Shown piece by piece: positions 13,799 to 38,851 of a stretch of 63,462 nt of DNA. Where the stretch lies: the IMG/VR virus record IMGVR_UViG_3300021185_002499, positions 1-63,462 of that record. One strand, given 5' to 3'. A program made the position numbers and the translations under genes. The notes beneath the pieces are model-generated. The model was not told where the DNA came from, made no database searches, and was given only the letters and a program-made list of their open reading frames with translations. The DNA comes from a virus. How positions within the stretch are numbered: position 1 is the stretch's first letter; the number at the start of each line of letters is the position of its first letter.

Positions 13799-13845
13799 TG
13801 TGACGTTAGCCCCCTATTATATTATCTTAACAGGCTATTGTCGCA
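13799..13845. promoter_or_regulatory. Operator-like inverted repeat, copy 1
   Basis: Arms TGTGACGTTAGCC (13799-13811) and GGCTATTGTCGCA (13833-13845), imperfectly inverted, with a 21-base spacer. The same element, with the same arm length and spacer, recurs at 20112-20158, and in reverse orientation with a shorter spacer at 16899-16936. A repeated, spaced inverted site in gaps between genes fits a phage regulator or replication protein (inference). Confidence 0.7.
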
Positions 13846-13996: not shown

Positions 13997-14035
13997 TTAC
14001 AGAGTAAGCACGAGGTAGTTTGGATAATATGGTTA
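13997..14035 (+). promoter_or_regulatory. 39-base phage promoter repeat, copy 1
   Basis: Matches the family consensus of three boxes in fixed register: TTACAgaG, then TAAGCACGA, eight variable bases, then GGATAATAT. No gene starts directly after it; copy 2 follows about 45 bases downstream, so two tandem starts may feed the first gene at 14132. Confidence 0.75.
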
Positions 14036-14074
14036 GGCTTTGACCTTTGTTTTGAGAAATTAATATTTTTATTT

Positions 14075-14113
14075 TTACAGAGTAAACACGAGGGATAATG
14101 GATAATATATATG
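14075..14113 (+). promoter_or_regulatory. 39-base phage promoter repeat, copy 2
   Basis: TTACAGAG, TAAACACGA, eight bases, GGATAATATATATG, gap-free against the other copies. Lies 18 bases upstream of the ATG at 14132, with an A-rich leader between. Confidence 0.85.
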
Positions 14114-14131
14114 TAACAAAAAAACAATAAT

Positions 14132-14302
14132 ATGAAAACTTTTATAACTTACAAAATTAATAATGATTTCTTTGAATTAGATTATAATAATTATAAAGAA
14201 GAAGAGAAAGAAATGTTAAACTATATTAAAGAAAATAATATAAAAGAATTTAAAAGATTAGAAAATAATAAAGGTTATAGGTTTAATGTTTTTACAAAGT
14301 AA
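14132..14302 (+). CDS. Small early protein, Lys/Asn-rich
   Basis: A 56-residue frame from the first ATG after promoter copy 2. Charged and Asn/Tyr-rich (MKTFITYKINNDFF...), no recognisable motif. Its last codons and stop (ACA AAG TAA) form part of promoter copy 3, so gene end and next promoter are fused. Function unknown. Confidence 0.65.
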   Translation: MKTFITYKINNDFFELDYNNYKEEEKEMLNYIKENNIKEFKRLENNKGYRFNVFTK

Positions 14303-14330
14303 ACACGACCTCAACTGGATAATATATATG
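14292..14330 (+). promoter_or_regulatory. 39-base phage promoter repeat, copy 3
   Basis: TTACAAAG, TAAACACGA, eight bases, GGATAATATATATG. The first box lies inside the end of the upstream gene. The downstream leader GAACATTAAAACACACAC repeats, at its start, the leader after copy 5. Confidence 0.85.
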
Positions 14331-14349
14331 AACATTAAAACACACACAC

Positions 14350-14484
14350 ATGAATAAATATCTAATAACACTTGCACTCGAAACATTACTTGAACAGGTA
14401 GTTGACTCAAGAGAAAACTCTAACGATTACAAAGATCGAATAAAAGAAATTGAAGAACAAATAAAAATAGTAAAAAAACTTTAA
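14350..14484 (+). CDS. Small early protein, helical
   Basis: A 44-residue frame starting after the A/C-rich leader of promoter copy 3. Leu-rich then charged (DYKDRIKEIEEQIKIVKKL), likely one long amphipathic helix or coiled coil. No known family; no Shine-Dalgarno. Confidence 0.6.
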   Translation: MNKYLITLALETLLEQVVDSRENSNDYKDRIKEIEEQIKIVKKL

Positions 14485-14495
14485 AACATACACGC

Positions 14496-14639
14496 ATGGA
14501 ATTTAATAGACTCGAACTCGAACTACTAAGATATGCAATGGAAGACTTTGCAAACAACGATCAACATACTGAATCAAGTCAATACAAAGCATTTGAAATT
14601 GTAACTAAAATAGATAAAATGATTAACAATATTAAGTAA
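14496..14639 (+). CDS. Small early protein
   Basis: A 47-residue frame (MEFNRLELELLRYAMEDFAN...), predicted helical, 11 bases after the previous gene, so probably cotranscribed from copy 3. No motif recognised. Confidence 0.6.
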   Translation: MEFNRLELELLRYAMEDFANNDQHTESSQYKAFEIVTKIDKMINNIK

Positions 14640-14717
14640 AATAAGTTAATTACACACATACACACACTGAACTACACCTATACCACTAAAAATACTAATA
14701 AATAAAACACATACCTT

Positions 14718-14894
14718 ATGACTAGTGAATTAAGTAAAAGAATAGCTAAACAAAATGCTAAAACTGAAAGACAAATGGGTTTCTATACTCTTGGTATGAA
14801 AAACGTTACACGAGTTACCTTCTCACGTAATGCTCAATGGAACCAAATAGACACAACTAAGGTTTACTATGCTCAAACCAAATTACAAGCTTAA
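14718..14894 (+). CDS. Small basic early protein
   Basis: A 58-residue basic protein (MTSELSKRIAKQNAKTERQM... then VTRVTFSRNAQWNQIDTTKV). Its final codons (TTA CAA GCT TAA) are the first box of promoter copy 4. No family recognised; the charge allows nucleic-acid or RNA polymerase binding, but this is a guess. Confidence 0.6.
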   Translation: MTSELSKRIAKQNAKTERQMGFYTLGMKNVTRVTFSRNAQWNQIDTTKVYYAQTKLQA

Positions 14895-14921
14895 TACGTG
14901 TTTAAACGGATAATATAAATG
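14883..14921 (+). promoter_or_regulatory. 39-base phage promoter repeat, copy 4
   Basis: TTACAAGC, TTAATACGT, eight bases, GGATAATATAAATG. The middle box is the most divergent of the seven (TACGT in place of CACGA), but the register is kept. It precedes the ATG at 14935 by 13 bases. Confidence 0.75.
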
Positions 14922-14934
14922 TAAAACAACTAAT

Positions 14935-15108
14935 ATGAAATACAATACTTCACTACATAACTACTTTAATCAACACAAATCACTTGGCAAACTATTCAAT
15001 GATATGAATGACGTAGACGTCGCTATTGATCCTGACCACAACACAAAAATGTACTTAAGAGGTTTGGGTATGAGTGAAGAAAAGATAAACAAAATAATAA
15101 ATAAATAA
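14935..15108 (+). CDS. Small early protein
   Basis: A 57-residue frame (MKYNTSLHNYFNQHKSLGKL...) ending in a helix LRGLGMSEEKINKIINK. First gene after promoter copy 4. Function unknown. Confidence 0.6.
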   Translation: MKYNTSLHNYFNQHKSLGKLFNDMNDVDVAIDPDHNTKMYLRGLGMSEEKINKIINK

Positions 15109-15109
15109 T

Positions 15110-15283
15110 ATGTTACAACAACTACACGAAATACATGGCAAACTAGATATGCTACAAGACTTAAAAATACAAGGTCTAGGATTATCACTCGATCAACAAC
15201 AACAACTACTTATCATTCACCAACAATTGCTCGATCAAAAGTTTCAACTAGAAAGACAAATTAAAAAAGAATATATACTATGA
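15110..15283 (+). CDS. Small Gln/Leu-rich early protein
   Basis: A 57-residue frame one base after the previous stop. Very rich in Gln and Leu (a DQQQQLLIIHQQLLDQKF segment), so a probable coiled coil that may oligomerise. No known family. Its stop overlaps the next start (ATGA). Confidence 0.6.
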   Translation: MLQQLHEIHGKLDMLQDLKIQGLGLSLDQQQQLLIIHQQLLDQKFQLERQIKKEYIL

Positions 15284-15387
15284 TGAATCAATACTACTTA
15301 GAAGAAATGCTTGCTAATACAAGCTACACTGAAGAACAGATAACTGAAATGGAAAACTGGGAAATTGAAATGCACTTAGGATTATGA
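15280..15387 (+). CDS. Tiny acidic early protein
   Basis: A 35-residue frame with two possible starts (15280 or 15283) and an acidic helix (SYTEEQITEMENWEIEMHLG). ATGA overlaps on both sides mean translation is probably coupled with its neighbours. Function unknown. Confidence 0.5.
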   Translation: MMNQYYLEEMLANTSYTEEQITEMENWEIEMHLGL

Positions 15388-15530
15388 AAACTAAAGATAA
15401 ATTATACGACTTACGTCAAGCTATTGATGACCTTGTTGCGATCGGTCCAGACTATGCACACTTTATGAATGCACAAATTGCACACAAAAATTTAAAGAAG
15501 ATTAAAAAACTATTAGAATACGTAGGCTAA
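15384..15530 (+). CDS. Small early protein
   Basis: A 48-residue helical protein (MKTKDKLYDLRQAIDDLVAI... HKNLKKIKKLLEYVG). Overlaps the previous gene by 4 bases. No family recognised. Confidence 0.6.
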   Translation: MKTKDKLYDLRQAIDDLVAIGPDYAHFMNAQIAHKNLKKIKKLLEYVG

Positions 15531-15543
15531 ATGCTATACACAA

Positions 15544-15582
15544 TTACAAGCCTAACACGAATAATATCGGATAATATATATG
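15544..15582 (+). promoter_or_regulatory. 39-base phage promoter repeat, copy 5
   Basis: TTACAAGC, CTAACACGA, eight bases, GGATAATATATATG. Lies fully in the gap between genes, 20 bases upstream of the ATG at 15603. The leader after it (GAACATTAAAACA) repeats that of copy 3. Confidence 0.88.
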
Positions 15583-15602
15583 AACATTAAAACAAAACAA
15601 AT

Positions 15603-15803
15603 ATGAAAACATTTGACAGATACAAACAAAACTTAAAACAAGTCGGTAACGACATCTATTCTTACGATACTGTTGTTGCACAAATAAAAGATAACAAGCT
15701 TCATTTGATGAACTGGCATGTACCCGGCGTTGGATCACACAGCGTTACAACGTCGAAGCATGTTAACTATGTAGCACAGCAACTTAATCTTGAAATAGCA
15801 TGA
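15603..15803 (+). CDS. Small early protein
   Basis: A 66-residue protein with alternating beta and helix segments (TVVAQIKDNKLHLMNWHVPGVGSHSVTTSKH). The NKLHLMNWHVPGVGSHSVTTS section looks like a small folded domain of a type met in phage genomes, but I cannot name it. Follows promoter copy 5. Confidence 0.65.
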   Translation: MKTFDRYKQNLKQVGNDIYSYDTVVAQIKDNKLHLMNWHVPGVGSHSVTTSKHVNYVAQQLNLEIA

Positions 15804-16006
15804 AGAAATTAATATTACAAAGACATGACATTTATAGTCATTACTACAAGGATTTTAATGATGGAAAATTTTACGAGGTTAATGCCTTTGACGTTGATCC
15901 AATAAGCAATAGAATTGTAAATAAAGATTTTAAAGATTCAGATTTCAGCAAAAGAAAAGAAATTAAAGATGAATTTAAAAACCCAAAATTTATAGAAACA
16001 ATATAA
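15800..16006 (+). CDS. Small early protein
   Basis: A 68-residue, charged protein (MKKLILQRHDIYSHYYKDFN...) overlapping the previous gene by 4 bases (ATGA). No motif recognised. Confidence 0.6.
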   Translation: MKKLILQRHDIYSHYYKDFNDGKFYEVNAFDVDPISNRIVNKDFKDSDFSKRKEIKDEFKNPKFIETI

Positions 16007-16010
16007 AAGC

Positions 16011-16211
16011 ATGACAAACACATGGATATTTTATGGTAACAACCATAGCGGAATTAAAACAATTCACTACATTAAACAATGTAAACGTCCTGAAGCGACA
16101 AGTGAATACAAAGAAATGATGCACTTATTAGAAAACAATACTTATTACACAACAGGATATATGACTAGTAAAGCATGGAATAAAGAAAACCAATATATAA
16201 AAGTAATATGA
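16011..16211 (+). CDS. Small early protein
   Basis: A 66-residue protein (MTNTWIFYGNNHSGIKTIHYI... EYKEMMHLLENNTYYTTGYM). It looks folded, with aromatic residues and one Cys. No family recognised. Four-base overlap with the next gene. Confidence 0.6.
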   Translation: MTNTWIFYGNNHSGIKTIHYIKQCKRPEATSEYKEMMHLLENNTYYTTGYMTSKAWNKENQYIKVI

Positions 16212-16387
16212 ACAAACTAGTACAACAAATAGCAGATGAGTGTATTGATATAATTGATGAACAAATTGACAATACAATCCACTGGGAGTTAGATGTTAAT
16301 GACCTTGAAGGTGATGATCTAAGCAAATTAGAATTAAAAATAAAACAACAAATATTATTTACATTAATTAAAAAAGTAACAAAATGA
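16208..16387 (+). CDS. Small acidic early protein
   Basis: A 59-residue protein with an acidic middle (ECIDIIDEQIDNTIHWELDV, then NDLEGDDLSKLELKI), mainly helical. ATGA overlaps at both ends put it in a tight translational chain. Unknown function. Confidence 0.6.
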   Translation: MNKLVQQIADECIDIIDEQIDNTIHWELDVNDLEGDDLSKLELKIKQQILFTLIKKVTK

Positions 16388-16704
16388 ACGACATTTACAC
16401 ACAACTAGCACAAATTTTAAACGTATCTAAAATTACTGAAGACTATACAACCACCGCTGATCTACAAATTAGCGAATATATGACTGCTGATAGCTATGAC
16501 GTACACGTTATGACCAACGAACCCATGTCACTAATGTGGGATACTGATGTGTATCAATATCAACCATCATTCAACGACATTATCGATCGCATTAAAGATT
16601 TAGACGAAGATGCTATTGTATATGTAAGCGATTTTGAAACATACTTACCAGAATATGAGGTTGATGATTATCTTGAACAACACGAAGAAGAATTACAAGA
16701 TTAA
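16384..16704 (+). CDS. Acidic early protein
   Basis: A 106-residue strongly acidic protein (many Asp/Glu, ending VDDYLEQHEEELQD). Highly acidic small phage proteins may act as DNA mimics or inhibit host enzymes; nothing in the sequence proves this. The end of the gene carries the first box of promoter copy 6. Confidence 0.65.
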   Translation: MNDIYTQLAQILNVSKITEDYTTTADLQISEYMTADSYDVHVMTNEPMSLMWDTDVYQYQPSFNDIIDRIKDLDEDAIVYVSDFETYLPEYEVDDYLEQHEEELQD

Positions 16705-16731
16705 CACGAAGTATAACGGATAATACTAACG
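16693..16731 (+). promoter_or_regulatory. 39-base phage promoter repeat, copy 6
   Basis: TTACAAGA, TTAACACGA, eight bases, GGATAATACTAACG. Starts inside the end of the acidic gene and serves the ATG at 16752. Its leader GAACAACAAACA is shared with copy 7. Confidence 0.87.
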
Positions 16732-16751
16732 AACAACAAACACAAAATAAT

Positions 16752-16898
16752 ATGACCTTACGAGACGTAAATATATTAGACAAAATAAATCAACACAAAA
16801 CGCATACAATGCGTGAGAAAACTTTTATTGCTAAAAATAAATATCAAATAAAGTTACCAACTGAAACATTAAATGATTACTTTTACAATAATAAATAA
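16752..16898 (+). CDS. Small basic early protein
   Basis: A 48-residue protein (MTLRDVNILDKINQHKTHTM...), helical then basic. Ends at the edge of the second inverted-repeat element. Function unknown. Confidence 0.6.
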   Translation: MTLRDVNILDKINQHKTHTMREKTFIAKNKYQIKLPTETLNDYFYNNK

Positions 16899-16936
16899 CA
16901 CGACAATAGCAATTTAAATAACAGGCTAACGTCACA
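16899..16936. promoter_or_regulatory. Operator-like inverted repeat, copy 2 (reverse orientation)
   Basis: Arms CACGACAATAGCA (16899-16911) and GGCTAACGTCACA (16924-16936) with a 12-base spacer. The second arm is the exact reverse complement of the first arm of copy 1. The first arm is the reverse complement of copy 1's second arm at 10 of 13 positions. Lies in the gap before the gene at 16951. Confidence 0.65.
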
Positions 16937-16950
16937 TAAAACAAATTGAT

Positions 16951-17100
16951 ATGGGCAAACTAACCGTAACATATAAAGGAAAACAAATTGAATACTTAAT
17001 CAATACAGAAGTTGAAGAGCATGTAACTATGAAAGCTATAAATGATATATTAAAATACTTCCCTAAAGATGCACCTGTAGATTTTGTTGAATTATATTAA
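16951..17100 (+). CDS. Small early protein
   Basis: A 49-residue protein with a beta-hairpin-like start (MGKLTVTYKGKQIEYLINTE) and a helix. Located right after the second inverted-repeat element and before promoter copy 7. No family recognised. Confidence 0.6.
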   Translation: MGKLTVTYKGKQIEYLINTEVEEHVTMKAINDILKYFPKDAPVDFVELY

Positions 17101-17101
17101 A

Positions 17102-17140
17102 CTACAAGATAAACACGAAGCATAACGGATAATAATAACG
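17102..17140 (+). promoter_or_regulatory. 39-base phage promoter repeat, copy 7
   Basis: CTACAAGA, TAAACACGA, eight bases, GGATAATAATAACG, in the gap 21 bases before the ATG at 17162. Last copy that I found in the window. Confidence 0.87.
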
Positions 17141-17540: not shown

Positions 17541-17871
17541 CAAAAATGTTATGAGAACCGTGTGGCAAAGCATTGTCCAGAGAAGCATAACATTTATGAT
17601 GGTCCTCTACCCCGTTGGCTTCGGCGAGGATAAGGAGTAATTACCTGAAGAACCCGCACAAGGGACACCATCATTATAATATTTTTTGTGTGTTTGTATG
17701 ACCAAAAAACCGTCGTACCTCTGCAGGGGTGAATAAAACCGGCGGTGAGGTCTTCACACAAATTAAAATCTACAGGGGATTACCGACGGGTAAATATAAT
17801 CTCGAGATGAAGTAAGGGTAATGTTCCTTCTCCTCTGTACCATATTAAATAATAACTTTAAAACAAACACT
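17541..17871 (+). ncRNA. Candidate structured RNA region
   Basis: About 330 bases without a convincing gene. G+C content is near 50% in the two 60-base stretches I counted, against about 30% next door. Helices visible by eye: 17544-17553 with 17586-17595 (10 pairs, no mismatch), 17596-17603 with 17667-17674 (8 pairs) followed by six U, 17685-17692 with 17755-17762 (8 pairs), 17709-17714 with 17741-17746 enclosing a hairpin at 17717-17730, and 17771-17779 with 17831-17839. A possible pseudoknot pairs 17560-17565 with 17654-17659. A 29-codon frame (17551-17640) overlaps the first part and cannot be excluded as a peptide. Family not recognised. Confidence 0.6.
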
Positions 17872-20010: not shown

Positions 20011-20132
20011 TGGGAAGAACAAAAGATTTGCTAATGCAAATGAATGAAGCGGAATTAAATAATTTAGAAATTATTTACGAGGTTATCCAACCAATCGATA
20101 ATAGTTCGAAGTGTGACGATAGTCAGTTATAA
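20010..20132 (+). CDS. Tiny acidic protein
   Basis: A 40-residue frame starting by TAATG overlap with the previous gene. Acidic helix, one Cys. Its final codons lie within the third inverted-repeat element. No family recognised. Confidence 0.5.
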   Translation: MGRTKDLLMQMNEAELNNLEIIYEVIQPIDNSSKCDDSQL

Positions 20133-20158
20133 TGTTATAGTAATAAGCTAATGTCACA
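20112..20158. promoter_or_regulatory. Operator-like inverted repeat, copy 3
   Basis: Arms TGTGACGATAGTC (20112-20124) and AGCTAATGTCACA (20146-20158) with a 21-base spacer, the same geometry as copy 1. The right arm covers the ATG (20151) of the HTH gene. A protein bound here would block its transcription or translation, so autoregulation is a natural hypothesis. Confidence 0.7.
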
Positions 20159-20765
20159 TAGAAATACAAAATACCTTGATAATAAAAGAATAGTGTACAG
20201 GAGAAATCCTATTACAGATGTACCTACTGTATCTTTTGATTGGGGTAATTTTTATAAAGACGGTACTTATGAATGTTATGAGCTATTCAGAAGTAAAGCT
20301 AAGATTACAACTTATAAATCACTAAAGTGGCATGTATTAGTATTATGGTACTTAAACCCTTCTTTAAATAAAGAAGACTTTGAAGAGCTAGTATATTTTA
20401 TAGCAGATAAAGAAAATGGATTTGTTACATTCTTTACGCCTGAAAAAGTTATAAAAGATATAGTAAGCACTGTTATGCTACATGATTTAGAAGATCCACC
20501 TAAAAACAAACTCAGAAAAATAATTTTTAAAGATAATTCAGGTTTACTTATTTCACAAAAGATGTCTATAGTTGGGACATTGATTGGAAAAACAAAAAAA
20601 GCAGATGCTAGTGATATTTACGAAACAATGTTGTATCTTCACGATGGTAATGAAAAGATTACTATAAAAAAGATAGCAAATGTGTTAGATGTATCTACTA
20701 GAACCATATACCGAAACATGGATGCTAAGTTAAACCAAGAAAAAGAATTATTAAATGAGTTATGA
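20151..20765 (+). CDS. HTH regulator-like protein
   Basis: A 204-residue protein. The C-terminal segment (EKITIKKIANVLDVSTRTIY then RNM, about 171-193) is a clear helix-turn-helix with the pattern of a sigma-4 or replication-initiator type. The N-terminal 150 residues are unassigned, with many aromatics. It overlaps the sigma gene by 4 bases and its start codon lies inside the third inverted-repeat element. Candidate regulator or initiator acting on that element; unproven. Confidence 0.7.
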   Translation: MSHRNTKYLDNKRIVYRRNPITDVPTVSFDWGNFYKDGTYECYELFRSKAKITTYKSLKWHVLVLWYLNPSLNKEDFEELVYFIADKENGFVTFFTPEKVIKDIVSTVMLHDLEDPPKNKLRKIIFKDNSGLLISQKMSIVGTLIGKTKKADASDIYETMLYLHDGNEKITIKKIANVLDVSTRTIYRNMDAKLNQEKELLNEL

Positions 20766-21517
20766 AAAAATATAACATACAGAACTATGTAAGATATAAA
20801 ACAGACACCACAGAATGCATTGAATCAATACAAGAAAAAGATTACAATGAATACGAAAGAAACGAGCTGATAACAATATTGATGCCGCTCGTTGAAACTA
20901 TAGCTAGAAAATTCTCCACAGGAGAACAAGCCTCAGGCATACTTGACATTACAGACTTAATACAAGAAGGAGCCGTTGGATTAATATATGCTGTAGATAA
21001 AATTGAATGGGATGTAATAAATTCATCCACTGACCCTGAAAAAACTCTTAAATCATTTGTTTCAAAAAGAATTAAGGGTGCAATAAGGAGAGCTATTGAT
21101 ATAAATAGAGGTAACATACGTATTCCTGAGCATAAGTTAAATGAAATGCGAAAAAATACAGGAGAAGATAAACGTATTGTAGAAATGTTCTTTAATAGTA
21201 TATTTTTAAGCTTAGACAACACATTAAATGAAGACGGTTCTAGTTATGATGTGATTGATTCTAGTAAAGATTATAATATAGATTTAATGAATAAATACCT
21301 TTTAGGTATCATGGAAACTTTCTTAGATATAAGAGAGTATGATGTTCTTAGAATGAGTTACGGTTTAGACTGTGATAAGATGTCGGCTAAAGATATTGCT
21401 GAAAAGTTAAATATTAAAGGTACAGCATCATTTGTAAGAATATCACAAATAAAAAGAGAAGCTATTGATAAGCTAATCGAAAGTGTAGATCCATCACAAG
21501 TTATTGATTGGCAATAA
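20762..21517 (+). CDS. Phage sigma-70 family RNA polymerase sigma factor
   Basis: A 251-residue sigma factor. Region 2 (about 38-115) has MPLVETIARKF, DITDLIQEGAVGLIYAVDK and KRIKGAIRRAID. Region 3 includes IRIPEHK (119-125). Region 4 (about 188-240) has REYDVLRMSYGLD and an HTH that reads SAKDIAEKLNIKG then VRISQIKREAIDKL. Region 1.1 is missing. It should redirect host RNA polymerase to phage promoters; the GGATAATA family upstream or unidentified late promoters are candidates. Cotranscribed with the HTH gene. Confidence 0.9.
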   Translation: MKKYNIQNYVRYKTDTTECIESIQEKDYNEYERNELITILMPLVETIARKFSTGEQASGILDITDLIQEGAVGLIYAVDKIEWDVINSSTDPEKTLKSFVSKRIKGAIRRAIDINRGNIRIPEHKLNEMRKNTGEDKRIVEMFFNSIFLSLDNTLNEDGSSYDVIDSSKDYNIDLMNKYLLGIMETFLDIREYDVLRMSYGLDCDKMSAKDIAEKLNIKGTASFVRISQIKREAIDKLIESVDPSQVIDWQ

Positions 21518-32349: not shown

Positions 32350-32492
32350 TACTTAATATTTCCCCCTCTTTTACGGCATTTAGCAATATAACCAGAAGCA
32401 TATGCAGATGGAAATACTCTGTATTTAGCTTTTGCTTTATTATAGCAAGCGTCTTTCTTTTTAAAAGGGGATGTTACAATGTTATATTTCAT
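32349..32492 (-). CDS. Small basic PSAYASG-motif protein
   Basis: A 47-residue frame (ATG at 32492). It contains KKKDACYNKAKAKYRVFPSA and YASGYIAKCRKRG, a motif set (KKDACY...PSAYASG...KCRK) that recurs in short proteins or domains of marine phages and giant viruses. It overlaps the 95-residue gene by one base and the giant gene by 4. With its neighbour it forms a small basic pair, perhaps packaged with DNA. Confidence 0.7.
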   Translation of the reverse strand: MKYNIVTSPFKKKDACYNKAKAKYRVFPSAYASGYIAKCRKRGGNIK

Positions 32493-35400
32493 TTTCTTTT
32501 GAATTTTTTAGTTTTAAGACCAGTTTTAAACTTTTTAGTTTTAATAAAAGTTTTAGCTTTGCTTGGTTTTTTAGTATTTTTTTCAATCATTCCTAAATCC
32601 CATTCTGAATAACCTAAAGCAAGTGCTATTGATTGCCATAATTCAGTTTCAGATTCCATTGCAGTTTTTAAATGATCTGCCTTCATTATAGCTCTATCCG
32701 CAGGAAGATTAGTTAATGCGGAAACTATTCTACCTCCTGCTAAAAAAGCTGGATTGTCTAAGCTGAATCCCTCTGTTCTCATTTTTTCCTTATCTTGTCT
32801 ATAAGTAAAAGCTTTTGCAGCGGAGTTTAATTTATTTAATTTAGAGTTTATTGGCGGAGATAAAGAAGTTGCTTTCATAACAGCTTTTGTGTAGTCTGTT
32901 CTTTTAGCTTTGTTCTGTTTTATAATTTCAAGAATAACATTTTTAGATGTTGATGCTATTGCTCCGTACAAACCAGTTCCGCGTAGCAGAGTGTCCATTG
33001 ATCCATTTGCTATATTCCACAATCTATCTTTTTCTTTTTCATCTTCTTCATCGGAAAATAACAAAGCAAATAAAGCTTGTTGCAAGGCAGAGAACACTAT
33101 GTTTTGTATTACGCTATAATACATTAACTTACTCACATTTGTTTTCCAATCACCCCGACCTGCTATTAAATCTTTCATTGCCTTTTTAGTTAGTCTAGCA
33201 TATTGCATCGGTGTGTTAGCAAAAGCTAATATAACTCTTCCTAAGGAGCTCGCTTGTTGCATACTTATTCTATCAGGCCTAGAAGACTGCTGCGATTCTT
33301 CTGCAGTTTCTGCAAAATCTAAGAATGCTTGTTCTTGTGCAGCTTTTGGTTCCATTCCTTCTTTTACATATCTATTCAGTCTGTTTCTATAAAATGAAGC
33401 ACCTCCAACAGCAATAGCAAAACTATCAGCCATTTGAGTAGGTAAGAATCCAAACTTTAATATAGCATTGAAAGCAGCCCTAACTTTATTATCAGCAGTT
33501 GAAGCAGCACTAGCAATTTCATCAGCATTAACATCTGTTTTTAATCCTGCTCTTCTTTGCTTCAAAAAGTCTGAATTAAATAAAAATCCAAAATCATCCC
33601 AAAATTGTTTTTGATTAGCAAAAGACTTTGCTGCCATTAATGGGTTATTATCGGTAAAGTTTATAAAGTTTACTGCTGATATGGTTTGTAGTAAAGCAGA
33701 TCGAGCATTTAAGAACATGATAGACCCTACTGATCCATTAACCCACTCTAACCAAGCCCTTTCTAATTTATTACCACCTTTTCTACGGTTTCTTCCATCT
33801 TTCATTCTGTACAGAATGTCCGTAAGTGATTCTATATATTCTTTACCATATAAAGCACGCAGTTTATTAATATTAGGTCCTTCAAGTTTACCTTGTTTAA
33901 ATTCACCAAATATCTCCTCTACATTATCTATCCATTCGCTCATATACTCAGAACGCTTTACTTGGTTAACGTAAGAAAGCATATCTGTTGTTATTGTACC
34001 TTCCATCCAATTACCACTTGGATTTGAATATTCTCCAGGAGGCGCTAATGTAATAAGCTGATTAGCAAAATCTTTTAAAGCTTCGTTCTTATTTATAAAT
34101 TTAATAACCTCATTTACATCTTGTCTACTAGAACCTTCAGGTAAAGTATCTTGTTTATTCCAAATATACAACCTAACAACTTGTTCGTTTGTGTATCCAG
34201 TTTCGTTGGTTTTACCAAGTTTAGCAGGAGTATTGTTTATTCTCTTTTTTAATTCCGCCCATGCATTCATAGACATTTGCTTATCTGTCTCAAATTGACG
34301 GATAGCTTTAGCGAACGGAGTCAAAAGATTATCCTTATAAAACTGCATTTGTTGATCTCCTTTTTCTTTTCTAGCTAAAGTTGTATATAATAAGCCTACA
34401 AAATCTTCTGCAGAATATGGTACAAAGAATTTATATTTACCTTTACCTTTGCCTATTATAGATGCTTTATCGGCTGAATATTCTTTTGCAAATTCTACAC
34501 CTGAAGATAATTCAAGAAATTTGTTAAAGTCTGTACTTAAAGATTTAGAAAATTTAATCTGTACGCCTTTGCTATTGTATTTTTCAAAAGGATTTTCTGA
34601 TTCTAATAGCCATTTTTGATTGTTAGGATTTATTCCATTATTTATTTTTGCTATTTCAGGATTTAAATATCTTTGCCACCAAAAATCATTATACACATTC
34701 CATTCTTTACCATTTATTAAGGGCATGGACGAAGTATATTCTCTTAACTTTGCATTATCTTTTATTGAAAGAGCTATTAAAGTATAATTATCTTTTAAAG
34801 CCTTAAGTGCTTTTTGAAAATTAATATTTTTATCTAAAGATGCATTAATTAAAAAATTAAAAGCCCAAACATTAGGCACTGCATGCTCCCATTCTGCTTT
34901 TCCATTATTTATATTGTCAATAGAAGCAATTTTAGCACCCATTCTATGAGGATGTGCTTTTTCATTTGTGGATGCTTCTAGCATGTAATAAATTGCTAAA
35001 AGATCTTTTTTATATTCTAAATCATTAGAAACTTTATTTATAAAATTCCAAAAATCAGTAAACATTATATCTACTTTTTGATTATAAATGCTAATAGCCT
35101 CTTTTGTAGCTTTTTTTCTAATTGTTTCAAGTTTTCCAGTAAACTTAGCACTATGATTAGCCGGCACTTTAGAATATAACTTGTTTTTACCAAGTACAAT
35201 TTTTAATTCATTAAATTTTTTTCTAGCATAAAGATCTAAGCCATAATATCTTTCTTTATCTAATGCCATCATGCTTGGGCTAAATAAACCGGTAGGATAA
35301 TCAAGCCTTTCGGCTATTCTCTTTATAGAATCAAAATATCTATTTATATTTTTTTCTGAGTTTAAATCATAATATTCAATATTATTTTTATTTGCAAATG

Positions 35401-38400
35401 CAATTGCGCTATTTTTACTAAATTTAAAAGACACAGGGCGGCCAACCTTTAAACTTATTTGATCAATAAAATTATCAGAAATTGGAATGCCTTGCAGTTC
35501 CGCTATAGCTTGTGCTTTTTCTAAAACCTTAGGATCAGAAACAACTTCCATAGTAGCATCAAAAGCAAAGGCTTCCGCCACCGCCTCAACTATTGCTGTT
35601 TTTCTTGCACCTTTTGTTGACCCACCAACATCATTACCTAAAAAATATTTAATAAATTCAGCTTTTGAAATTTTCTTTTTAGTAAATACTTTATTTCCTT
35701 CTGCGGTACGCTCACGTAATTGTTTTCCTTCTTTATCTAATACAGGCTCAGCAAAATCTTTTAATCTTTTATTAAAAATAGATTGAGGCAAAGCTTCATA
35801 TATTGATTCAAAATTATTAGCAAGAAAAGATCTATAATCTTCACCTTTACCAAATAATTTAGAAATAGGTTTTTTAAGTTCTGTTCTAAAACTTTTTTCT
35901 AATTCTTTTTTAAAAGTTTTTTCGGTAACATTTGGTAACTTTGTACCAAAAGTTTTTCTTACAGCATCAAATACTACCGGCTTTATTTCATCGCTAATAT
36001 TCATTTTTTTACGTAAGCTTTGCAGTTCTTTAGTTGGTTTTTCTTCAACTATTTCACTTGTCTCTTCTGTTGTTGTATCAGTAACAGCTTTAGCTTCTGT
36101 AACATCTAGTTTAAACTCTGTATCTAATATACGATTGGCCGCTTCAATAGATCTGTTAGCTAATTGACCTTGCACGTATGTATTTAAAGTAGCTCCTTTA
36201 GAAGGATCATATGCATTGATAAGATCTAACAAACCGCGTTTTCCAATTTCAATTTCACTTTGAAGTAGCTCAAAATCAAAGCCGGGTACATCTCTGTATT
36301 TATTTGTAAGTCTTGTAGTTAATGGCTTATAAGCTTCAATTATTTCAAACGCGCCATCTTTACCTTTTTCTTCATATATTTTTTGAACTTTATTTGGAGG
36401 TATTTTTCGAGATTCTTTTCTTACTATTCCTTGTGTCTGTTCTTTTTCATCACCTATTAATTCTTTAGATAATTCTTTTTCAATAATACTTCCTTCAAGC
36501 TTATCAAATCCTTGAGCTATTCTTATTTGTTCCTTAGTAAGAGTACCTTTATCTACACTTTTATTTATGTCTCTTATAAAGTCAATTACATCTTGCCCTG
36601 TATTAAATTTTGTTTTTATTCCAAAAGTCTGCATAACAGATCTTATTCCATCTGATATTTTATCTTCATTTAACGTTATATCTCCTGATTTTAATGCATC
36701 AGAAAACAAAGTTAAAGCCTCTTCCGCTGCCTGAGAGCTGCTTACATCGGGGTCTTGTAAATATTCTTTTAATCTTTCTCTATATATTGAGTTATTTATT
36801 TGGTCAATATCTATTTTATTTAATTCTTCATTTAAAGCTATTGCTAGTTTTTTAGAAGCAGCTGGATTTTCTTTTAATGCTTTAAATAGTAAAGCATGCA
36901 TAAATTCATGATTTGCCACATTAACCCCCTCAGCGGTTTTAGATGCTTGACTAGAGTTTATTACTATTGTTTGCTTATCTGTATTTGGGTCTTGTATTAT
37001 AAAACCATAATCACTAGATTGTTTTTTAAGTCTATTTTTATCGTCTGTGTTTAAATACCCTTGTTTATCTAAAAATTCGTTTATTTGCTCTTCATTATCA
37101 AATTTTTCTATTTCTAAATTATCAACATATTGAGCCGCTCTTTTTACTTTTTCTGTTTGTTTAGTTAGCTCTTCAGCATTTTTTCTTATATTAAATATTC
37201 CTGTTTGGGCCTCAGCTATTCTTTGCTCAAGACCAAGTAATATTTCTTTTTTTGTATTGTTATCTAATGATGTATCATTATTTACCGCACGAGCTGTTTT
37301 ATTAGTTTGTTGTATTATTTCAGCTTTAGAGTTAATTTCTTTAATTTGATCATCAGTTAAAGAAAATAATATTTGATTATTTTTTTCAACATTTGATTTT
37401 ATTTCAGATATTAATTTATTTTGCTGTTCAGATATGCTATTAATAGACTCTTCCGAAAGCCCCTTTTTAAGTTTTGCTCTTTCTAAATCACCAATTTTAG
37501 TAATTTTTTTTCTTAAAGCAGAATAATCATCTTTATTTCTTAAATTAGCAGCACTTTTTATTCCTTTTGCTCCAAGCACAATGCCTGTTGATCCAAAAGC
37601 TCCTTGCAAAAAACTTTCATAACCTTCTTTAGAAGTCATAAACTTCCAAGCTTCTGCTTCCGCTTCTTGTTGAGTCTTACCCTCAGCTAGTGATGTGTTT
37701 ATTGTTTCTAAACCTACATCTACCCATTCTTGTGTGCCGTTAAATCCGGTTGTAAAAGTAAGGTCTATTATATTTTTTGTAATAGATGGGTTAGTTCCTA
37801 AAATAGATTTAGAAAGCCTATCTAGTCCAATTTTTTCTAATTTATATCTAAGTGCACCTATAGTTAATGGGGTTACTACATCAAACATGCCGCTTGCCTG
37901 TAGCTGTTCTAAATTCATGCCTTTTGTTTGCGCTAATATTCTATTATGTTCGGCAATAGTTTGACCTATTATTTCAACCCCTAATCCAACCCCTCCAGTA
38001 GAAGCGGATAAGATAGCACTAGAACCAACATTCATTATAGCATTAATTGCACCCCCCGCGCCATACGCTATATTTTTACCAATACTTTCATTTTTTGAAA
38101 TATCAGTAAAACCAAATGCAGGTTTTGTTAAAGTAGCATATTTTTTAAGTTTAGCTTCTTGCTTACCTAATTCAACTCTATTGTGTTTTAAAACTTTATT
38201 ACCAAACTCTTCACCAAATATATTGTAGGCTATATCTGTATCAGATAAAACCATATGATATAGATACTGACCATAATCATCTATTTGAGCAAATCTATTC
38301 ATAGCTTGTCCTGTACTATTAGCTATAGATTGCATTAAAGTTTTAGGTTTTTCTGGCGCTTCTTTTCTTCGCTCTATTTCAGCTTTAGATATTCTTTGAG

Positions 38401-38851
38401 TTTCTTCAAAAGCGGTTATAGGCTTTAATTCTCCTGCACTCTTTTTTTCTATTTCAGGTATTCCAAAATCAGTTAATATATTTCTAGCAACTTCTGACTC
38501 TTTTTTAGAGTACTCATCAGCTGTTACAATAACTTCTTCTAGCGGAACACTTGTTATAGCCCAACCCCCCTTTTCAAAAGGCTGGCCTGTTAAAAGAATT
38601 TCACCTTTTTCTGTAAAACCCGAAGAAGTAACTCCCGGCTTGGAATCCGTATTGGGCGCTGCATTTCCCTCCACAACCGCACCCGGTATTGTGGGGTCTG
38701 TCTTTCCCGGCTTTTTAGTTGATTCTCTATTATCAATTAATCCGCTTTCTTTAGAAGCTTTATCTATATAAGAATCAATATCCATACCAGATGCTTCTGC
38801 AGCTTTTTGTATCTGCTCTAGAGTGTATTCTTTTTCGTTTAGTTCAAACAT
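32489..38851 (-). CDS. Giant internal virion (ejection) protein with HExxH and sigma-2-like segments
   Basis: A 2120-residue protein, third of a 215/447/2120 trio arranged like T7 gp14/gp15/gp16, which are ejected into the host. Residues 1-50 form a small helical unit (LEQIQKAAEASGMDIDSYID). Hydrophobic stretches lie at about 255-300. NVANHEFMHALLF (HExxH at 648-652), with Glu710/711 downstream, suggests a zinc metallopeptidase. Residues about 835-905 (IIEAYKPLTTRLTNKY, then GLLDLINAYDPSKGATLNTY) resemble sigma-70 region 2. The C-terminal end (ALGYSEWDLGM) is a segment seen in related phage giant proteins. Likely DNA-ejection and host take-over protein. Confidence 0.8.
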   Translation of the reverse strand: MFELNEKEYTLEQIQKAAEASGMDIDSYIDKASKESGLIDNRESTKKPGKTDPTIPGAVVEGNAAPNTDSKPGVTSSGFTEKGEILLTGQPFEKGGWAITSVPLEEVIVTADEYSKKESEVARNILTDFGIPEIEKKSAGELKPITAFEETQRISKAEIERRKEAPEKPKTLMQSIANSTGQAMNRFAQIDDYGQYLYHMVLSDTDIAYNIFGEEFGNKVLKHNRVELGKQEAKLKKYATLTKPAFGFTDISKNESIGKNIAYGAGGAINAIMNVGSSAILSASTGGVGLGVEIIGQTIAEHNRILAQTKGMNLEQLQASGMFDVVTPLTIGALRYKLEKIGLDRLSKSILGTNPSITKNIIDLTFTTGFNGTQEWVDVGLETINTSLAEGKTQQEAEAEAWKFMTSKEGYESFLQGAFGSTGIVLGAKGIKSAANLRNKDDYSALRKKITKIGDLERAKLKKGLSEESINSISEQQNKLISEIKSNVEKNNQILFSLTDDQIKEINSKAEIIQQTNKTARAVNNDTSLDNNTKKEILLGLEQRIAEAQTGIFNIRKNAEELTKQTEKVKRAAQYVDNLEIEKFDNEEQINEFLDKQGYLNTDDKNRLKKQSSDYGFIIQDPNTDKQTIVINSSQASKTAEGVNVANHEFMHALLFKALKENPAASKKLAIALNEELNKIDIDQINNSIYRERLKEYLQDPDVSSSQAAEEALTLFSDALKSGDITLNEDKISDGIRSVMQTFGIKTKFNTGQDVIDFIRDINKSVDKGTLTKEQIRIAQGFDKLEGSIIEKELSKELIGDEKEQTQGIVRKESRKIPPNKVQKIYEEKGKDGAFEIIEAYKPLTTRLTNKYRDVPGFDFELLQSEIEIGKRGLLDLINAYDPSKGATLNTYVQGQLANRSIEAANRILDTEFKLDVTEAKAVTDTTTEETSEIVEEKPTKELQSLRKKMNISDEIKPVVFDAVRKTFGTKLPNVTEKTFKKELEKSFRTELKKPISKLFGKGEDYRSFLANNFESIYEALPQSIFNKRLKDFAEPVLDKEGKQLRERTAEGNKVFTKKKISKAEFIKYFLGNDVGGSTKGARKTAIVEAVAEAFAFDATMEVVSDPKVLEKAQAIAELQGIPISDNFIDQISLKVGRPVSFKFSKNSAIAFANKNNIEYYDLNSEKNINRYFDSIKRIAERLDYPTGLFSPSMMALDKERYYGLDLYARKKFNELKIVLGKNKLYSKVPANHSAKFTGKLETIRKKATKEAISIYNQKVDIMFTDFWNFINKVSNDLEYKKDLLAIYYMLEASTNEKAHPHRMGAKIASIDNINNGKAEWEHAVPNVWAFNFLINASLDKNINFQKALKALKDNYTLIALSIKDNAKLREYTSSMPLINGKEWNVYNDFWWQRYLNPEIAKINNGINPNNQKWLLESENPFEKYNSKGVQIKFSKSLSTDFNKFLELSSGVEFAKEYSADKASIIGKGKGKYKFFVPYSAEDFVGLLYTTLARKEKGDQQMQFYKDNLLTPFAKAIRQFETDKQMSMNAWAELKKRINNTPAKLGKTNETGYTNEQVVRLYIWNKQDTLPEGSSRQDVNEVIKFINKNEALKDFANQLITLAPPGEYSNPSGNWMEGTITTDMLSYVNQVKRSEYMSEWIDNVEEIFGEFKQGKLEGPNINKLRALYGKEYIESLTDILYRMKDGRNRRKGGNKLERAWLEWVNGSVGSIMFLNARSALLQTISAVNFINFTDNNPLMAAKSFANQKQFWDDFGFLFNSDFLKQRRAGLKTDVNADEIASAASTADNKVRAAFNAILKFGFLPTQMADSFAIAVGGASFYRNRLNRYVKEGMEPKAAQEQAFLDFAETAEESQQSSRPDRISMQQASSLGRVILAFANTPMQYARLTKKAMKDLIAGRGDWKTNVSKLMYYSVIQNIVFSALQQALFALLFSDEEDEKEKDRLWNIANGSMDTLLRGTGLYGAIASTSKNVILEIIKQNKAKRTDYTKAVMKATSLSPPINSKLNKLNSAAKAFTYRQDKEKMRTEGFSLDNPAFLAGGRIVSALTNLPADRAIMKADHLKTAMESETELWQSIALALGYSEWDLGMIEKNTKKPSKAKTFIKTKKFKTGLKTKKFKRK
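36137..36349 (-). other. Sigma-70 region-2-like segment inside the giant protein
   Basis: Encodes about residues 835-905 of the 2120-residue protein. Order and spacing follow sigma regions 2.1-2.2: AYKPLTTRLTNKYRDVPGFD corresponds to the first helix. LLQSEIEIGKRGLLDLINAY corresponds to the DLIQEGxxGLxxAxxxF helix that binds the RNA polymerase clamp, and DPSKGATLNTYVQGQL matches the ...GxxFSTYAxxxI part. No region 4 follows. Compare the full sigma factor at 20762-21517. Confidence 0.6.

What the first reader, a model, noticed from the sequence alone, without database searches (positions are those of the whole stretch)
13997..17140. Seven gap-free copies of a 39-base, three-box promoter-like element unlike the usual Bacteroidetes promoter
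Copies at 13997, 14075, 14292, 14883, 15544, 16693 and 17102 align without any gap: TTACAaG, TAAnCACGA, exactly eight variable bases, GGATAATA, then A/T-rich bases to a start codon 13-30 bases downstream. In copies 3, 4 and 6 the first box is built from the last codons and stop of the preceding gene. The known Bacteroidetes primary-sigma promoter (TAnnTTTG at -7) is not present in them. They therefore look like a phage-specific early promoter family with an unusual extra box (CACGA) and fixed spacing, recognised either by the phage sigma factor or by another phage protein.
Basis: partly seen in the sequence, partly recalled or inferred. Interest (0 to 1): 0.85.

Follow-up and report, generated by a model that had tools for sequence, protein, structure and literature searches.

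The report
Phage promoter family with matching sigma
A group of uncultivated viruses of marine Bacteroidota drives its cluster of small genes from a repeated 40-base promoter unlike the host's own, very probably read by a promoter-choosing (sigma) protein that the virus encodes itself, which raises the question of how these viruses make their very first RNA.

Summary
Confirmed and extended. The seven gap-free copies are real, and the element recurs in a clade of uncultivated phages: 583 unique sites in 149 loci, none in reversed controls over 5.0 Mb. Consensus: TTTACAAAC-TAAAYACGA-N7-T-GGATAATA. With GATAAT as -10 box (-12 to -7), the base at predicted +1 is a purine in ~100% of sites although the scan did not use it; start codons lie exactly at +1 (72 sites) or mostly 10-24 nt downstream. 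It is very probably a sigma70-type promoter. It is not the Bacteroidota primary promoter: TAHHTTTG is enriched in sigma-less relatives but not in this clade. The phage sigma factor (20762-21517) co-occurs with the element in 50 of 53 testable loci; the other three hold diverged versions. Base -13 covaries best, of 351 protein columns, with sigma residue 120, though with few independent origins. Timing ('early') and real 5' ends are untested. Puzzle: no host-type promoter was detected, yet the sigma must first be made. A sigma-region-2-like domain in the 2120-aa late, possibly injected protein is a candidate starter.

The parts
13997..14029 (+). promoter copy 1 (predicted +1 at 14035); first of a tandem pair 78-80 bp apart that recurs in relatives; no ORF of its own
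14075..14107 (+). promoter copy 2 (predicted +1 at 14113), 19 nt before the start of ORF 14132
14292..14324 (+). promoter copy 3 (predicted +1 at 14330), 20 nt before the start of ORF 14350; overlaps the end of ORF 14132-14302
14883..14915 (+). promoter copy 4, weaker (predicted +1 at 14921), 14 nt before the start of ORF 14935; overlaps the end of ORF 14718-14894
15544..15576 (+). promoter copy 5 (predicted +1 at 15582), 21 nt before the start of ORF 15603
16693..16725 (+). promoter copy 6 (predicted +1 at 16731), 21 nt before the start of ORF 16752; overlaps the end of ORF 16384-16704
17102..17134 (+). promoter copy 7 (predicted +1 at 17140), 22 nt before the start of ORF 17162
20762..21517 (+). 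phage sigma70-family factor, 251 aa, probable reader of the promoter; residue 120 covaries with base -13
   Evidence: phrog_351 8.5e-24; best PDB match sigma-28/FliA 1.6e-8; co-occurrence; covariation
20151..20765 (+). HTH204, putative DNA-binding partner or regulator, overlaps the sigma gene by 4 nt
   Evidence: weak C-terminal helix-turn-helix matches; co-occurrence
36125..36397 (-). sigma-region-2-like domain (aa ~819-909) of the 2120-aa late protein 32489-38851; candidate injected starter (hypothesis)
   Evidence: phrog_351 E 0.0029; profile's best PDB hits are sigma factors, E 0.05-0.16; AlphaFold pLDDT ~90 in this part; Foldseek top 50 are sigma factors or sigma-containing models, prob 0.75-1.0, best E 0.14

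Best explanation
The 39-base element is a phage-specific sigma70-type promoter. Its -10 box is GGATAATA (G-12 A-11 T-10 A-9 A-8 T-7), its upstream part is one conserved block TTTACAAAC-TAAAYACGA (-38 to -22), and transcription starts at a conserved purine 7 nt after T-7, giving leaderless mRNAs or A-rich leaders of about 10-24 nt. Host core RNA polymerase carrying the phage sigma factor (20762-21517) recognises it and transcribes the cluster of small rightward genes (14.1-17.4 kb and possibly beyond). Shown: the element, its conservation, its geometry, its position before ORFs, its absence from sigma-less relatives. Inferred: that it is transcribed, that this sigma reads it, and when in infection it fires.
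For: Seven copies, never reached by shuffles. 583 unique sites in 149 loci, 0 in reversed sequences. Per genome the copies cluster in one region, nearly always on one strand. Unbiased purine at predicted +1 (A 0.43, G 0.57, C and T 0.00) and ATG exactly at +1 in 72 sites. 83% of sites have an ATG-ORF within 40 nt versus 20% of random points. The sigma is present in near-complete carriers and absent from six reference phages that lack the element. 50 of 53 sigma loci with enough upstream sequence carry the element; the other three have diverged versions. Sigma residue 120 tops 351 columns of sigma and HTH204 for covariation with base -13: K with T in 14 of 15 phages, R with T in 5 of 71. Host-type boxes are not enriched in this clade but are in sigma-less relatives. 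The motif is near-absent from 400 Flavobacteriaceae genomes (17 hits against about 5 control). No Rpb1-type RNA polymerase found.
Against: No 5' end, expression or binding data. HTH204 and the ERF/exonuclease block co-occur just as well, so co-occurrence alone does not single out the sigma. The covariation rests on about three separate origins of K120 with T, one exception (L400) and several origins of T without K; an earlier candidate residue (118) failed out of sample. The sigma gene lies downstream of these promoters, so the first sigma must come from elsewhere.
Confidence: 0.75

Rival explanations
1. The element is an immediate-early promoter started by a factor injected with the DNA: the sigma-region-2-like domain of the 2120-aa late protein docks on host core polymerase; the phage-made sigma then takes over or serves other genes.
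For: The clade shows no enrichment of host-type promoters, so something must start transcription. The domain looks like sigma region 2 by sequence and predicted fold. The protein is found in all nine motif-bearing relatives searched and not in MW202828 or the part of elemoA held. Injected multidomain proteins with zincin domains that jump-start transcription are a known theme (PMC5512222).
Against: No region 4 or other upstream-box-reading domain was seen; the segment was not found in 3 of 10 genomes; profile-profile match to the phage sigma is weak; virion location is inferred from gene position only.
Confidence: 0.12
2. Host RNA polymerase with a host sigma factor reads the -10-like part and a phage protein (HTH204 or another) acts as activator on the -38 to -22 block.
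For: The upstream block is long and strongly conserved; HTH204 co-occurs with the element as tightly as the sigma; rare near-perfect copies exist on flavobacterial contigs.
Against: The Bacteroidota primary box TAnnTTTG is absent from the element; the motif is not a host regulon; a different inverted-repeat element lies before and across the HTH204 start, a more natural operator for it; sigma residue 120, not an HTH204 column, tops the covariation with -13.
Confidence: 0.1
3. The repeats are not promoters but another cis element (operator, replication or RNA element).
For: No expression data; copy 1 has no ORF of its own; the clade also carries other repeated elements.
Against: Fixed orientation, position before ORFs, invariant A-11/T-7, purine at the position 7 nt after T-7, and ATG exactly at +1 in 72 sites are promoter geometry; no Rfam match.
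Confidence: 0.03

Closest known systems
Promoters read by phage-encoded sigma factors (for example SPO1 gp28 middle, SPO1 gp33/gp34 late, T4 gp55 late; from general knowledge)
   Same: A phage sigma plus a dedicated promoter class distinct from the host primary promoter, recurring before phage genes
   Different: Different boxes; a conserved block from -38 to -22 besides the -10; Bacteroidota phages; host-type promoters not detected in the genome
Sigma-28/FliA-type promoters (GCCGATAA -10; from general knowledge)
   Same: A GATAA-containing -10 box; FliA is the closest solved structure to the phage sigma
   Different: The TAAA of the upstream block lies about 4 nt closer to the -10 than in FliA promoters, and the block is longer
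Bacteroidota primary-sigma promoter TTTG / TAnnTTTG
   Same: Read by the same host core polymerase (inferred)
   Different: No TAnnTTTG and no -33 TTTG in the element; not enriched in the clade (PMC6847099, PMC9723704)
Virion-RNA-polymerase early promoters of N4-like and crAss-like phages
   Same: Phage-specific promoters before small early-region genes; the 3004-aa protein carries a crAss muzzle domain
   Different: No Rpb1-type polymerase domain found and a sigma70-like -10 geometry; absence of a single-subunit polymerase could not be validated

Membership tests
sigma70-family promoter | -10 box with A-11 and T-7 | tested here: met
   A-11 1.00 and T-7 1.00 in 583 sites; these positions were in the scan matrix, so partly by selection
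sigma70-family promoter | purine start about 7 nt after T-7 | tested here: met
   A 0.43, G 0.57 at that position, which was not used in the scan
sigma70-family promoter | -35 element at the usual spacing | tested here: inconclusive
   conserved ACA at -36 to -34 inside a block that runs on to -22
sigma70-family promoter | RNA 5' ends at +1 | not testable with these tools
   no transcript data
Bacteroidota primary-sigma promoter | TAnnTTTG at -12 to -5 with TTTG near -33 | tested here: not met
   absent from the consensus; not enriched upstream of genes in seven genomes of the clade
phage-sigma-dependent promoter class | phage encodes a sigma factor with regions 2 and 4 | tested here: met
phage-sigma-dependent promoter class | promoter class and sigma occur together | tested here: met
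   50 of 53 loci, other three diverged; six reference phages lack both
phage-sigma-dependent promoter class | specific recognition by that sigma | tested here: inconclusive
   covariation of residue 120 with -13, few independent origins
phage-sigma-dependent promoter class | transcription depends on the phage sigma | not testable with these tools
   needs in vitro transcription or a reporter
single-subunit or virion RNA polymerase promoter | phage encodes such a polymerase | tested here: inconclusive
   PF00623 absent with working controls; PF00940 absent but its control rang nowhere

The most novel reading that the evidence does not exclude
A phage clade that has given up host-recognised promoters: it injects a giant protein bearing a sigma-region-2-like domain to start transcription on host core polymerase, then runs its own sigma and a dedicated promoter class.
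Probability: 0.12. Interest if true: 0.85.

Novelty: new variant of a known kind. Interest (0 to 1): 0.6.

Why it matters
It gives a sequence-defined promoter class, with its probable cognate sigma, for a large clade of uncultivated marine Bacteroidota phages: a way to find their transcription units, a possible orthogonal promoter-sigma pair for Bacteroidota, and a testable case of sigma-promoter coevolution. The lack of detectable host-type promoters makes the question of how infection starts transcription concrete.

Tried and rejected
Covariation between the two bases before TAA and the two after CGA (direct repeat 11 bp apart): not supported. Sigma residue 118 (N/D/E) dictating G at -13: looked good in 21 phages, failed in new ones (p 0.52). 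A host regulon using the same motif: 400 Flavobacteriaceae genomes give 17 hits against about 5 control; only G032 and G033 stand out. Structured RNA: no Rfam match; the 280-nt gap at 17541-17820 folds little better than shuffles (z -1.1). HTH204 fold: low confidence, no informative structural match. Direct sigma-to-virion-domain profile comparison: weak (hhalign probability 3.8). Literature searches found no description of this motif in the papers held; the Drobysheva phi14:2 paper was not held.

Full report
Observation. The seven copies are real and gap-free. TAANCACGA-N8-GGATAATA with up to three mismatches occurs eight times in the window (seven copies plus a weak hit at 1097) against 0.86 in shuffles, with no shuffle reaching eight. 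Every GGATAATA in the window lies in a copy. Copy 1 lacks an ORF of its own and forms a tandem pair with copy 2; the pair's spacing of 78-80 bp recurs in several relatives.

The phage. The window is a 63,462-base virus record. TerL is 63% identical to MW202828 and about 45% to the Flavobacterium elemo phages; weaker relatives infect Cellulophaga, Maribacter and Tenacibaculum. The 3004-aa protein carries a crAss muzzle domain. A Bacteroidota host is inferred from these relatives and from six Flavobacteriales among eight genome-collection hits. No cultured phage in the collection searched has a close relative of the sigma or of HTH204.

The element is family-wide. An exact-pattern scan of IMG/VR hit 76 stretches, some of them chance single hits. 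Whole-record scans gave 3-10 copies in most carriers, nearly always on one strand, with one control hit in all 34 records. A weight-matrix scan of ten genomes found 6-9 copies each, clustered, and none in reversed sequence. With a matrix cut at -6, all loci held give 583 unique sites in 149 loci and no control hit in 5.03 Mb. These sites come partly from overlapping or related contigs and are not all independent.

It behaves like a promoter. Consensus TTTACAAAC-TAAAYACGA-N7-T-GGATAATA-TAAnTR. Taking GATAAT as -12 to -7, the base at +1, which the scan did not use, is A 0.43 or G 0.57 and essentially never C or T. Start codons fall exactly at +1 in 72 sites, never at -1, -3 or -5, and mostly at 10-24 nt otherwise. 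About 30 sites have an ATG at -2, -4 or -6, which may be chance ATGs inside the motif. 83% of sites have an ATG-ORF within 40 nt, against 20% of random points. The A-rich leaders fit Bacteroidota translation (PMC6847099).

It is not the host's primary promoter. In 85-nt upstream regions TAHHTTTG is over-represented in sigma-less relatives (MW202828 14 against 1.9, elemoA 14 against 4.0, Panino 14 against 4.0, phi46:3 9 against 4.0, phi38:1 9 against 1.9) but not in seven genomes of this clade, for example 2 against 2.2 in the window. None of the six sigma motifs described in the text for F. psychrophilum resembles the element (PMC9723704).

Who reads it. The gene at 20762-21517 is a sigma70-family factor. 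It and HTH204 are present in near-complete carriers; six reference phages lack both sigma and element. The one long carrier without it, G008, has its contig break where the gene would be. Of 80 sigma-anchored loci, 53 have at least 6 kb upstream; 50 of these have the element and three have diverged versions. Across 86 phages, sigma residue 120 (R in RGNIRIPEH) is the column most associated with the majority base at -13 among 351 columns of sigma and HTH204 (z 19.3, next 12.5): K with T 14 of 15, R with T 5 of 71. By recall, not tested, it aligns near E. coli sigma70 R451, next to the extended -10 contacts. On the tree K120 with T appears in a clade of twelve and in two separate rows, with one exception, and T without K arose several times; so this supports but does not prove recognition. 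An earlier residue hypothesis failed and is reported.

Starting problem. If the phage sigma reads these promoters, its own first expression needs another source. No TTG-N18-22-TAHHTTTG promoter was found before the HTH204-sigma operon; instead a conserved inverted repeat lies there. The 2120-aa late protein has a segment that looks like sigma region 2 in sequence and predicted fold. The Foldseek E-values are weak (best 0.14) although the 50 listed matches are sigma factors or sigma-containing models. An injected starter is a hypothesis, not a result. Iyer et al. (PMC5512222) describe injected multidomain proteins with zincin domains that jump-start transcription; the word sigma does not occur in that text.

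Verdict. A real, well-conserved, very probably functional phage promoter class with a probable cognate sigma: a new variant of the known theme of phage-sigma-dependent promoters. Timing is unknown.

Noticed in passing
window 7859, 15532, 17423, 18244, 19643, 50524, 57391 (+ strand): TGCTATACAC is the most over-represented 10-mer (7 copies against 0.1 expected), all on the + strand irrespective of gene direction; with one mismatch 10 on + and 0 on -. Conserved with the same polarity in most of the clade (absent from G011), absent from MW202828, the held part of elemoA, Panino and phi38:1. Possibly a Chi-like, replication or packaging polarity signal.
   Followed up: partly
window 13799-13845 and 20112-20158, single half-site at 16924-16936: Conserved inverted pair of half-sites GGCTAnnGTCRCA about 21-22 AT-rich bp apart, in the divergent region before the leftward genes and overlapping the HTH204 start codon; candidate operator for HTH204.
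   Followed up: partly
window 36125-36397 (-): Sigma-region-2-like domain inside a 2120-aa late protein that also has an HEFMH (zincin-like) motif.
   Followed up: partly
L237, L239, L240, L241 and G032: Near-perfect copies of the element on flavobacterial contigs that look chromosomal, before ORFs (two copies in G032); could be host genes that respond to such a sigma, a cassette family, or chance.
   Followed up: partly
L165 + L272 (MW202828): Nine copies of the palindrome TGTCGTTAACGACA (one variant) upstream of genes, alongside host-type promoters.
   Followed up: no
L268-L271 (Cellulophaga phage phi38:1): ACACTATCAAA recurs shortly upstream of start codons, 5 full copies.
   Followed up: no
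window 17541-17820: 280-nt gap of higher G+C without a listed ORF; no Rfam match and folding little better than shuffles.
   Followed up: partly
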